From assembly GCF_023923205.1 (NCBI RefSeq), contig NZ_CP099490.1, positions 1,116,001 to 1,180,000 of the forward strand: a stretch of 64,000 nt of DNA. Reading direction: 5' to 3'. Within the stretch, counting starts at the first letter, position 1, and each line of letters starts with the position of its first letter. The notes beneath the pieces were generated by a model, which was not told where the DNA came from, made no database searches, and saw only the letters and a list, made by a program, of their open reading frames with translations. The position numbers were made by a program, and so were the translations under genes. Source of the DNA: Ornithinimicrobium cryptoxanthini. Lineage in GTDB: Bacteria; Actinomycetota; Actinomycetes; Actinomycetales; Dermatophilaceae. Below are positions 40,289-42,809 of the stretch, piece after piece.

Positions 40289-41601
40289 GAACCGCCCAAC
40301 CACACCTGCTCGGGCGCGGGGTGGCTCAGGAAGTTCGTCATCGCCTGCGTGAAGCCATAGGCCCCCGCCTGCCCGAAGATCACCAGGTCACCAGGCTCCA
40401 GCGGCTCGAGCTCGGCCGTGCCGACCCGGTCCAGCGAGGTGCACAACGGACCCGCCAGGGTGTATGCCGTGCGCTCGCGGTCGTCCTCCGCCGGACCGCT
40501 CGCGTCGGTCCAGTCGGTGGTGGCCGGCTCCTGGCGTGGCGTCACCGCCCGGACCGGGAACGACTGCCCGGTCATGAGCGGGCGCAGCAGGTGGTTGATC
40601 CCGCCCTCGAGCACCGCAAACGTCGTGCCCCGGCTCTGCTTCACCCGCACCACCCGGGTCAGGTAGACCCCGGTCGGTCCAGACAGCCACCGGCCGGGCT
40701 CGAGCACCACGTGGCCGGTGAACCACGCGTTCTCCTCCAGCAGGTCACCCAGCCCAGCGCCGAGGGCGACGATGTCCAGGTCCGGTGAGCCCACGGCATA
40801 CGGGATGCCGAGGCCGCCGCCGAGGTCGATGAGGTCCAGGTCATGCCTGAGCATCGCCTGCAGACGTTGGCCGATGCCCATCGCCGTGCGGTGGTTGGCG
40901 AGCAGGGTCGCGGCATCGAGTTCGTTGCTGGCGGAGAAGACCTGCAGGCCGGAGAGCCGCACCTGTGGGTAGGCCTGGCACCCGGCGACGAACTGCGCGA
41001 GCTCCTCCTCGTCGACGCCGAACGCCGACGGCCCCGAGCCACCGATGATCGAGGCGGTCTCGCTGATCCCGGTGAGCGGGTGGACCCGCACGTTGACCGG
41101 CAGGGGGTCGGGCCCGGTGTGCCACTGCGCCAGCCGCTCGACGTCCTCGATGCCGTCGACCTGGATCCGGGCTCCTGCTGCCAGCGCGGCCCGCAGGTCG
41201 GCCTCGGACTTGGCCGGTCCGGCAAAGACCATCCGACCCCGCGTCGCAGGCTGCTGCGACGTCGGCGCGGGCGCGCTCGCACGCGCGGTCTGCACCGCTG
41301 CCACCTCACCCGCCGACGCACAGTCGAACCAGGCGCCGAGACCGGCCAGCTCAGCCAGCAGGGGGGGACCGGGGTTGGACTTGACGGCATAGGCCAGGTG
41401 GACCTGCTCGGGCAGGGTCATGCGCAGATCCACGAACCGCTGCCGCGCCACATCCAGCCGGTAGGCGAAGCACGGCGTCGTCCCGGTCTCGGCGACGAGC
41501 ACGGCAGCGGCGTCCGACAACGCGAAGAGGTGGCCGTCGTCCGATGCCTGCGCGGCGGTGGCTGACTGCGCGGCGGTGGTCATGCTGACGATGTCAGTCA
41601 T
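40276..41601 (-). CDS. Type III PLP-dependent decarboxylase (LysA/BtrK/SbnH-like)
   Basis: The 441-residue protein has the fold III features of the diaminopimelate decarboxylase family: the PLP lysine in LAYAVKSNPG (near residue 74), DLGGGLGIPY, EPGRWLSGPTG and the dimer-partner cysteine in AGPLCTSLDRVG. The GPLC-T-S-LD form and the HPLTGISE loop are closer to specialised decarboxylases (siderophore or carrier-protein-linked types) than to housekeeping LysA, in my reading. Pro/Ala- and acid-rich insertions (APAPTSQQPATRG, and near residue 365) are unusual. It is the last gene of the dap operon and overlaps the aminotransferase by ATGA. It may decarboxylate DAP or a succinylated DAP. Confidence 0.75.
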   Translation of the reverse strand: MTDIVSMTTAAQSATAAQASDDGHLFALSDAAAVLVAETGTTPCFAYRLDVARQRFVDLRMTLPEQVHLAYAVKSNPGPPLLAELAGLGAWFDCASAGEVAAVQTARASAPAPTSQQPATRGRMVFAGPAKSEADLRAALAAGARIQVDGIEDVERLAQWHTGPDPLPVNVRVHPLTGISETASIIGGSGPSAFGVDEEELAQFVAGCQAYPQVRLSGLQVFSASNELDAATLLANHRTAMGIGQRLQAMLRHDLDLIDLGGGLGIPYAVGSPDLDIVALGAGLGDLLEENAWFTGHVVLEPGRWLSGPTGVYLTRVVRVKQSRGTTFAVLEGGINHLLRPLMTGQSFPVRAVTPRQEPATTDWTDASGPAEDDRERTAYTLAGPLCTSLDRVGTAELEPLEPGDLVIFGQAGAYGFTQAMTNFLSHPAPEQVWLGGSITP

Positions 41602-42809
41602 GGCGCCTCCCAGAACGGAGCCATCCGCGCCAGCCCCTGGGCCAGGGCCTTGGGGTCGCCGCCGCAGGAGACGCGCACGTGGTCGGCCCCGCCTGCGCCG
41701 AACGCACTGCCCGGCACGACGATGACCTGACCCTCGTCGCGCAGCCGCAGGCAGAACCCCATCGGGTCACGGACCGCCCACTGCGGCAACGGGATCCAGG
41801 CATAGAAGCCTCCGGCCGGCGTCGCCACCGGACGCACCGCCGCAGGGCCGGTCTGGGCGATCGACCAGCGTGCGATCAGCTCGCGCCGCGTGTCCCGCAG
41901 CACCGACTCCGAGGCCCGCAGCAGCGCCGTCGCCGCCAGCTGGCTGGGGCGTGCCGCACACGTCGTCATCGCGTTGTGCACCAGCCGCGCCGGGTGCAGC
42001 AGCGCTGGGTCACCGACCGCCCAGCCGACCCGCAGCCCGGGCGCCGCCCAGCCCTTGCTCACCGAGGTGACGACGACGCCGGTGTCGGTCACGTCGTGCA
42101 GCGAGGCGGGCCGCGGGCCGAGGTGGACCTCGCGATAGACCTCGTCAGACACCAGCAGCGCCCCGGCCGCCCGCGCAGCGGAGGCGACCGCAGCGAGAGC
42201 CTCAGGGGTGGCGCCACCGCCGGTCGGGTTGCCCGGGTGGTTGATCACGGCCAGTGCCACGTCGCCGGAGTCGAGCGCCGCCGAGAACTGCGCGGGGTCG
42301 AGATCTCCGCGCGGGCCGAGTCGATAGGGCACCGGCACGGCACCGGCCAACCGCGCCAGGGTGGCGTATGCCGGGAAGCCGGGGTCCGGGACCAGGACCA
42401 GTTGGCCGGGGGAGACGTGGCTGAGGAAGAGGGCGGTCAGCGCCGCCTGGCTGCCCGCGGTGACCATAATCCGGTCCGCGACGTCCCCGGCCACGGGGCG
42501 GGTGTCCGTCTCGTGGTGAGAGGCGGATGTCTGGAGACGTGACACTGGTGCGCCGGAGCCCACCAATGTCACGTCCCCAAGGTGGTGGTGGTCGGCGATC
42601 GCCGAAACCAGCTCGGGGATGCCGGTGTTTGGACCGTAGCCCAGCGGCTCCGGCCGGGCAGCGCACTCCTCCAGTGCCCGTCGGGCCGGCTCGGGCAGGA
42701 CCCACCCAGGCACGCCTAGGCCCAGGTCGATCGCCTGAGGTGGTGCACCGACGGCCATGGCCCGGATCAGGGACGGCGACAATGACGTGACACGAGTCGC
42801 CGTGCTCAC
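41598..42809 (-). CDS. PLP aminotransferase, DapC-like, carrying a 30-codon insertion
   Basis: The 403-residue fold I aminotransferase has the PLP lysine in SVSKGWAAPGLRVGW, NHPGNPTGG and SDEVYREVHLG. In this operon it should transaminate N-succinyl-2-amino-6-oxopimelate with glutamate to N-succinyl-DAP. Between HHLGDV and ADRIMVTAGSQAAL there is an extra 30-residue piece containing VSRLQTSASHHETDTRP. At the DNA level this piece is exactly 90 bp bounded by ACGTCCCC repeats; removing it restores the usual spacing. GTG 42809 overlaps the dapD stop (GTGA). Confidence 0.8.
   Translation of the reverse strand: MSTATRVTSLSPSLIRAMAVGAPPQAIDLGLGVPGWVLPEPARRALEECAARPEPLGYGPNTGIPELVSAIADHHHLGDVTLVGSGAPVSRLQTSASHHETDTRPVAGDVADRIMVTAGSQAALTALFLSHVSPGQLVLVPDPGFPAYATLARLAGAVPVPYRLGPRGDLDPAQFSAALDSGDVALAVINHPGNPTGGGATPEALAAVASAARAAGALLVSDEVYREVHLGPRPASLHDVTDTGVVVTSVSKGWAAPGLRVGWAVGDPALLHPARLVHNAMTTCAARPSQLAATALLRASESVLRDTRRELIARWSIAQTGPAAVRPVATPAGGFYAWIPLPQWAVRDPMGFCLRLRDEGQVIVVPGSAFGAGGADHVRVSCGGDPKALAQGLARMAPFWEAP
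42489..42578 (-). repeat. 90-bp in-frame palindromic insertion element
   Basis: ACGTCCCC occurs at 42481-42488 and 42571-42578, exactly 90 bp apart, like an 8-bp target duplication. One end of the insert is a hairpin: GACGTGACACTGGTG (42536-42550) pairs with CACCAATGTCACGTC (42561-42575), 14 of 15 positions. The insert is in frame and adds 30 codons to the aminotransferase. No second copy was seen in the window. Confidence 0.75.

What the first reader, a model, noticed from the sequence alone, without database searches (positions are those of the whole stretch)
42481..42578. 90-bp palindromic element inserted in frame in an aminotransferase gene
ACGTCCCC repeats exactly 90 bp apart bound a segment with a 15-bp hairpin arm; deleting it restores the expected protein sequence (HHLGDV-ADRIMV). 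It adds VSRLQTSASHHETDTRP and neighbours without breaking the frame. It resembles coding-compatible palindromic elements such as Rickettsia RPEs, which I do not know to be described for this group.
Basis: seen in the sequence. Interest (0 to 1): 0.7.

Follow-up and report, generated by a model that had tools for sequence, protein, structure and literature searches.

The report
Hairpin DNA repeat inside enzyme gene
A 46-letter hairpin repeat that usually sits just behind genes in one group of actinobacteria has also landed inside an enzyme gene without breaking its reading frame, and longer versions of it appear to form repeat tails on another protein.

Summary
The window lies in an Ornithinimicrobium-group genome. 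The finding is real but its borders are wrong. The repeated unit is a 46-bp palindrome at 42533-42578; the other 44 bp are unique in the genome and do not fold significantly. The outer ACGTCCCC is best read as gene codons, not a proven target duplication.

The palindrome belongs to a dispersed family: five near-identical copies plus one decayed array in this genome, and 31 hand-accepted copies in 8 of 31 genus genomes. Of the 24 intergenic copies, 17 lie within 60 bp behind a stop codon. Larger copies add hairpin modules in 30-bp steps between constant outer arms.

Most orthologues compared lack the insert. Ornithinimicrobium sp. F0845 has the palindrome at the same aminotransferase site, in frame. 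Another in-frame copy sits in an ABC ATPase linker of F0845, and copies form the C-terminal tails of the next gene's product in four genomes.

It works like Rickettsia RPEs (in-frame) and pneumococcal BOX (modular) but is neither. No RAYT transposase, flanking duplication or T-run was found. I rate it a new variant of a known kind: a REP/BOX-like passenger tolerated in a disordered loop. How it spreads is not shown.

The parts
42533..42578 (.). 46-bp palindromic repeat (family member): GGAGACGTGACACTGGTGCGCC-GGAG-CCCACCAATGTCACGTCCCC
   Evidence: dispersed copies in the genome, hairpin z -9.3
42489..42532 (.). 44 bp of the 90-bp insert that are not part of the repeat family; linker sequence that brings the total to a multiple of three
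   Evidence: no other place below E 0.1; fold z -1.6; absent from G018, which has the palindrome
42481..42488 (.). ACGTCCCC, outer member of the 8-bp direct repeat; on the minus strand it is part of the codons for GDV
   Evidence: P0002, without the palindrome, has PDVADRIMV at the same place
41598..42809 (-). PLP-dependent aminotransferase gene, called DapC-like from its neighbours (lysA, dapD, dapA, dapB by my reading), holding the insert at about residues 80-107 of 403
   Evidence: (aminotransferase models match but none reaches its NCBIfam cut-off among the 25 shown of 65); model: blocks 81-90 and 91-100 at pLDDT 53, no helix or strand from 75 to 107

Best explanation
The segment holds one 46-bp copy of a dispersed, modular palindromic repeat known here only from one clade of Ornithinimicrobium-type bacteria. 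Its outer arms GGGGACGTGACA / TGTCACGTCCCC enclose one to five hairpins added in 30-bp steps. Shown: dispersal, hairpin form, different module numbers at one orthologous junction, position behind stop codons, and in-frame copies in three proteins. Inferred: the usual copies act as hairpins at mRNA 3' ends (stabiliser, or terminator without a T-run), or are simply tolerated there. The aminotransferase copy is a neutral passenger, translated as part of a disordered surface loop that also varies in length in relatives; selection kept the frame, with the extra 44 bp making the total divisible by three. How copies are made is unknown. A transposase acting in trans, or copying through a single-stranded hairpin, is the likeliest guess.
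For: Five exact-core copies in the own genome, 0 with the reversed control pattern. 31 hand-accepted copies in 8 of 31 genus genomes (recount). Larger copies of 74, 75, 76, 76, 135, 136, 166, 166 and 166 bp, with spacers 30 bp apart in the five long ones checked. 46 bp in G010 versus 166 bp in G008 at the same junction. 17 of 24 intergenic copies start within 60 bp behind a stop codon, against 14.9% of intergenic 46-mers in the window; by distinct site 12 of 17, p 4e-7. The lgt-end copy is in G000 and in none of 7 relatives examined. In-frame copies: aminotransferase (G000, G018), ABC ATPase linker (G018), C-terminal tails (G006, G008, G018, G019). The aminotransferase insert is a low-confidence loop in an otherwise confident model.
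Against: No flanking duplication: 0 of 31 copies with a shared word of 6 or more, mean 3.2 against 3.3 in random pairs. No RAYT: PF01797 in 0 of 31 genomes. No transposase among 20 of 56 neighbouring proteins scanned, three of which matched no Pfam family. The aminotransferase site is hard to read as one clean insertion: G000 and G018 are not sisters, and the three carriers need at least two changes, with 32 of 500 shuffles as low. Loop length goes with the genome rather than the site (45 bp in four G018 copies, 46 in five of G000). Copies may therefore be old and mostly inherited. No T-run: TTTT within 15 nt in 0 of 31 copies. Whether the peptides are in the mature proteins is not tested.
Confidence: 0.8

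Rival explanations
1. The palindromes are primarily functional 3'-end hairpins (terminators or mRNA stabilisers) of the host, alike through common descent and gene conversion. They are not mobile elements, and the in-gene copies are rare strays.
For: Position behind stop codons and between convergent genes. Behind the binding-protein gene, 5 of 18 genomes have this palindrome, while G010 and G013 have unrelated hairpins at that spot. Loop type goes with the genome. Both sides change in 6 of 20 pairs (11 of 500 shuffles reach this).
Against: The same sequence recurs at unrelated genes and inside three proteins. The lgt copy is in G000 and none of 7 relatives examined. Convergent-gene bias is also what tolerated insertions show (BOX, PMC3049150, passages read). 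TTTT follows 0 of 31 copies.
Confidence: 0.35
2. The aminotransferase copy was present in the common ancestor of the clade and was lost or decayed many times, rather than inserting separately in G000 and in G018/P0011.
For: Same position and same first frame (GDVT) in G000, G018, P0011 and, perhaps decayed, P0017. Long palindromes are prone to deletion (established knowledge).
Against: Needs several losses: G010, G008, G006 and 13 short-looped P rows of 23 lack it. Loop length matches the host genome.
Confidence: 0.5
3. The hairpin is a chance or selected feature of this gene alone.
For: The left 44 bp are unique.
Against: Next genome copy at E 5e-12; looser pattern found in 10 of 31 genus genomes, seven of them with near-consensus copies.
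Confidence: 0.01

Closest known systems
Rickettsia palindromic elements (RPE)
   Same: Short palindromic repeats found both between genes and fused in frame into conserved proteins; one tested enzyme stayed active (PMC2229807, passages read).
   Different: RPEs are 105-146 bp in Rickettsia; this is 46 bp plus 30-bp modules in an actinobacterial clade. No sequence comparison with RPEs was run.
BOX elements of Streptococcus pneumoniae
   Same: Outer modules enclosing a variable number of internal modules; over-represented between convergent genes (PMC3049150, passages read).
   Different: BOX is described from streptococci; sequences were not compared. Here the unit is 30 bp (ten codons) and arrays lie in frame in protein tails. 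The BOX paper too reports reading frames formed by large BOX elements.
GTAG and CGTC REPs
   Same: Small dispersed palindromes, often downstream of genes, some intragenic. CGTC REPs include RPE-4 and RPE-6 and lack a dedicated transposase (PMC3733652; found passages and section 4 part 1 of 4 read).
   Different: One-sided tag, stems of 8-9 bp and CCA-like tails for CGTC; here the stem is 18 pairs with CGTC/GACG inside both arms. No GTAG tag, no RAYT. Its phylum lists for both super-families do not include Actinobacteria, but it mentions REP-like families without a terminal motif in M. tuberculosis, so untagged actinobacterial palindromic repeats are not new as such.
Enterobacterial RU/ERIC mobile sequences carrying reading frames
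   Same: Small repeats reported intragenically (PMC2759123; title and start of abstract in search listing only).
   Different: 103-168 bp by that listing, different hosts.

Membership tests
GTAG REP / REPtron | GTAG tag at one end of the palindrome | tested here: not met
   Consensus of 15 copies has no GTAG at either end
GTAG REP / REPtron | RAYT (Y1_Tnp, PF01797) transposase in the genome | tested here: not met
   0 of 31 genus genomes; the control search rang in 5 of 14 genomes
CGTC REP | one-end CGTC tag, stem 8-9 bp, loop 4-5 bp, unpaired CCA-like tail | tested here: not met
   18 pairs from the first nucleotide, CGTC within both arms, no unpaired tail against PMC3733652
Rickettsia palindromic element | 105-146 bp Rickettsia-specific palindrome | tested here: not met
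   43-166 bp matched stretches in Ornithinimicrobium-type genomes; host and basic size differ; sequences not compared
Rickettsia palindromic element (way of working) | fused in frame into conserved protein genes as well as intergenic | tested here: met
   aminotransferase in two genomes, ABC ATPase linker, four C-terminal tails; 24 of 31 copies intergenic
BOX (way of working) | pairing outer modules with a variable number of internal modules | tested here: met
   46 bp plus 30-bp steps; 46 versus 166 bp at one orthologous junction
MITE | terminal inverted repeats with target-site duplication and a parent IS | tested here: inconclusive
   Inverted repeats yes; a flanking duplication of 6 or more in 0 of 31 copies (the borders of four copies inside arrays are approximate); no systematic search for a parent IS was run
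Intrinsic terminator | GC-rich hairpin followed by a T-run | tested here: not met
   TTTT within 15 nt on either strand in 0 of 31 copies; terminators without T-run not testable here

The most novel reading that the evidence does not exclude
A new class of modular palindromic repeat whose 30-bp hairpin module equals ten codons. It can therefore grow and shrink inside genes without shifting the frame, and it supplies ready-made disordered linkers and repeat tails to host proteins (for example TSRPTGVPGD repeats in G019), in a clade that also carries a second, 32-bp tandem family at gene ends and in the same ATPase linker.
Probability: 0.3. Interest if true: 0.65.

Novelty: new variant of a known kind. 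Interest (0 to 1): 0.5.

Why it matters
In-frame palindromic insertions are best known from Rickettsia (PMC2229807), with intragenic REPs reported in other bacteria (PMC3733652). This gives an independent case in an actinobacterial clade, with carriers, empty sites, different module numbers at one site and protein tails in the same family. It makes two questions testable: how such short palindromes spread without a recognisable transposase, and whether hairpin repeats are a source of new linkers and tails in proteins.

Tried and rejected
Single 90-bp insertion with target duplication: rejected, because the left 44 bp are not in the family, the outer repeat is explained by codons, and no copy shows a duplication. 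RAYT-driven REP: rejected. Virus, plasmid or phage origin: no hit with the strict pattern or with one 46-bp copy, L002, at E 0.01. Known RNA family: only two matches far below their cut-offs, mir-1003 and Proteo-phage-1. The 44 bp as a second hairpin of the family: z -1.6, no other copy.

Wider distribution: in 297 genomes drawn from the order, 7 match at E 1e-4. Two are of this genus (G000, G026) and five lie outside it (G172, G311, G260, G329, G156), the best at 1e-8. G172, G311 and G329 were looked at and judged differently built look-alikes; G260 and G156 were not looked at. The named-genome scan did not return G010, whose copies fit the pattern, so that collection does not hold every carrier.

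Papers: the library holds no paper with both Ornithinimicrobium and palindromic, and 6 with Ornithinimicrobium and repetitive, 5 of them seen in listing only. Searches were for comparison. PMC3733652, PMC2229807 and PMC3049150 were read in passages, the first also in section 4 part 1 of 4; the other papers named were seen in listings only.

Copies were accepted by hand from the listed part, whose list was cut (27 of 31 genomes match at E 1, many of them probably by chance). Fetched but not counted as core: L151, L152, L155, L156 (variants, tallied apart), and L159, L160, L163, L167, L168, L170, L171, L173, L174, L175, L176 (weak, decayed or look-alike). For lgt, 8 of the 15 matches were examined and the 7 of 40-44% identity were left out. 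The gene caller was my own, trained on 22 ORFs of the window; the background rate is from this window alone.

Full report
What is in the sequence. The two ACGTCCCC words at 42481-42488 and 42571-42578 are 90 bp apart. They lie in an aminotransferase gene on the minus strand (41598-42809, 403 aa), next to lysA-, dapD-, dapA- and dapB-like ORFs (names by my reading). Aminotransferase models match it but none of the 25 NCBIfam rows shown reaches its cut-off, so 'DapC-like' rests on the neighbours. The palindrome covers 42533-42578. On the gene strand it folds into 18 uninterrupted pairs plus 2 (-39.5 kcal/mol; 200 shuffles mean -15.6; z -9.3), while the other 44 nt give z -1.6.

It is a repeat. 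Searching the whole genome with 42470-42590 gives further places at 1194078, 1350448, 1827977 and 1343122 (best E 5e-12 to 3e-6) and a weaker one at 238345 (E 0.001), all within query 61-113, the palindrome being 64-109. An exact two-arm pattern finds five copies and none with the reversed control. Over 31 genus genomes a looser pattern hits 10; its reversed control hits once each in G010 and G002. On inspection the hits in G003, G024 and G002 and one in G023 are look-alikes or variants, leaving seven genomes with near-consensus copies. In an alignment of 15 copies the stretches GACGTGACA and TGTCACGT are invariant.

Where it occurs. The own genome may be left out there, and G010, which carries the pattern, was not returned. 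A covariance model over 297 genomes of the order gave five genomes with matches at E 1e-4 outside the genus, the best 1e-8 (G172, G311), of similar build but different arms.

Modules. Larger copies keep the outer arms and add hairpins YTGGTG-loop-CACCAR separated by CCGACCCA-like spacers: 74, 75, 76, 76, 135, 136, 166, 166 and 166 bp. Spacers are 30 bp apart in the five long ones checked. At the junction before the gene starting MSQPQEVPIR, G010 has a 46-bp copy and G008 a 166-bp array. An array near tRNA-Gly(CCC) occurs in G000 (decayed), G010 and G019.

Context. Of 31 core copies in 8 genomes, 7 are inside genes (3 internal, 4 near C-termini). Of the other 24, 17 start within 60 bp behind a stop codon, 4 are further off (62, 69, 88 and 622 bp) and 3 have none. 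In this window 14.9% of intergenic 46-mers meet the 60-bp criterion. By distinct site (my grouping of orthologues) it is 12 of 17, p 4e-7; between convergent genes 9 of 17 against 3.4%, p 1e-9. The background is one 64-kb window and a home-made gene caller, so these are rough. No copy has TTTT within 15 nt, and none has a flanking word of 6 or more in common (0 of 31 each; four borders inside arrays are approximate). Site turnover: the lgt-end copy, whose TGA is the lgt stop codon in G000, was not seen within about 190 nt of the stop in the 7 relatives examined. The copy behind a periplasmic-binding-protein gene is in 5 of 18 genomes, and G010 and G013 have different hairpins there.

Coding copies. 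Aminotransferase: G018 carries a 45-bp version at the same site, without the 44 bp, in frame. G010, G008, G006, G013, G022 and G015 lack it, and G025 has a different, longer loop. In 23 protein rows (P0001-P0020, P0022-P0024), P0001 is the own protein; P0011 reads GDVTLVPPDAPVSRP there; P0017, P0010 and P0004 may be decayed relatives (my reading); P0009 and P0012 have other insertions; P0002, P0019 and P0020 have slightly longer linkers; 13 are short (P0016 equals G006 and P0020 equals G013). On the tree the three carriers G000, G018 and P0011 need at least two changes; 11 of 25 inner branches are open, and the pairing of P0011 with G018 is weak (92/42). G000 and G018 are not sisters (97/98). 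Loop length goes with the genome: 45 bp in the four simple G018 copies, 46 in the five of G000, as gene conversion or separate insertion would give. ABC ATPase: G018 has the palindrome in frame in the linker between its two ABC domains (GGGRDTGAPGAPVSRPP). G006, G008, G010, G019 and G023 do not have it there, but G006, G010, G019 and G023 have another repeat, ACCGAGCGC. For G013, G015 and G022 the linker was not extracted correctly, so nothing is claimed; G000 has no match to this gene at E 1e-80. The next gene's C-terminal tail is made of the element in G006, G008, G018 and G019; in G019 it is ten-residue repeats TSRPTG[AV]P... The G018 protein of that gene matches no NCBIfam family.

Structure. 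AlphaFold2 with 55 sequences gives mean pLDDT 92; residues 81-100 are at 53 and 101-110 at 78, without helix or strand from 75 to 107. This fits a tolerated surface loop; distance from the active site was not measured.

Mechanism. Y1_Tnp/RAYT was found in 0 of 31 genomes, and no transposase among 20 of 56 neighbouring proteins. There was no copy in viral contigs, plasmids or phages at the limits used. Spread is therefore unexplained. My best guess is occasional copying by an enzyme in trans or through hairpin intermediates, with retention behind genes where it does least harm or helps mRNA 3' ends, and rare survival in permissive loops.

Compared with the known. It works like RPEs (PMC2229807) and BOX (PMC3049150) and resembles REPs (PMC3733652), but the tested defining features of GTAG and CGTC REPs are not met. 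PMC3733652 also mentions untagged REP-like families in M. tuberculosis, so such repeats in actinobacteria are not new as such. I call it a new variant of a known kind.

Noticed in passing
G010 L189, L190; G008 L191; G019 L192, L193 and others: A second repeat family: 32-bp tandem units beginning CGACCGAGCGC, in several loci starting soon after what looks like a stop codon. The pattern CGACCGAGCGCRYGG gives 52, 60, 37 and 23 hits in G010, G023, G019 and G008 with 0 in the reversed control, but 1 in the own genome (control 2).
   Followed up: partly
L179, L181, L185, L186 (ECF-type ATPase genes of G006, G023, G010, G019): The linker between the two ABC domains looks like an insertion hot spot: this palindrome in G018, ACCGAGCGC-type repeats in these four, all in frame.
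   Followed up: partly
L004:1506-1551 (G000:1827982-1828027): The palindrome's TGA serves as the stop codon of lgt in this genome; the 7 other relatives examined have different C-terminal ends.
   Followed up: partly
L169 (G000:238345 onward), L165, L158: A long hairpin array near tRNA-Gly(CCC) and a gene containing VLLSDRDILA or its end RSFQNFHR (dCTP deaminase by recall) is present in three genomes, decayed in the own one.
   Followed up: no
L174, L175 (G172, G311, another family of the order): 45-bp palindromes of similar build (GAGACGTGAGACTGATT...) found by the model at E about 1e-8; they may be a related family elsewhere.
   Followed up: no
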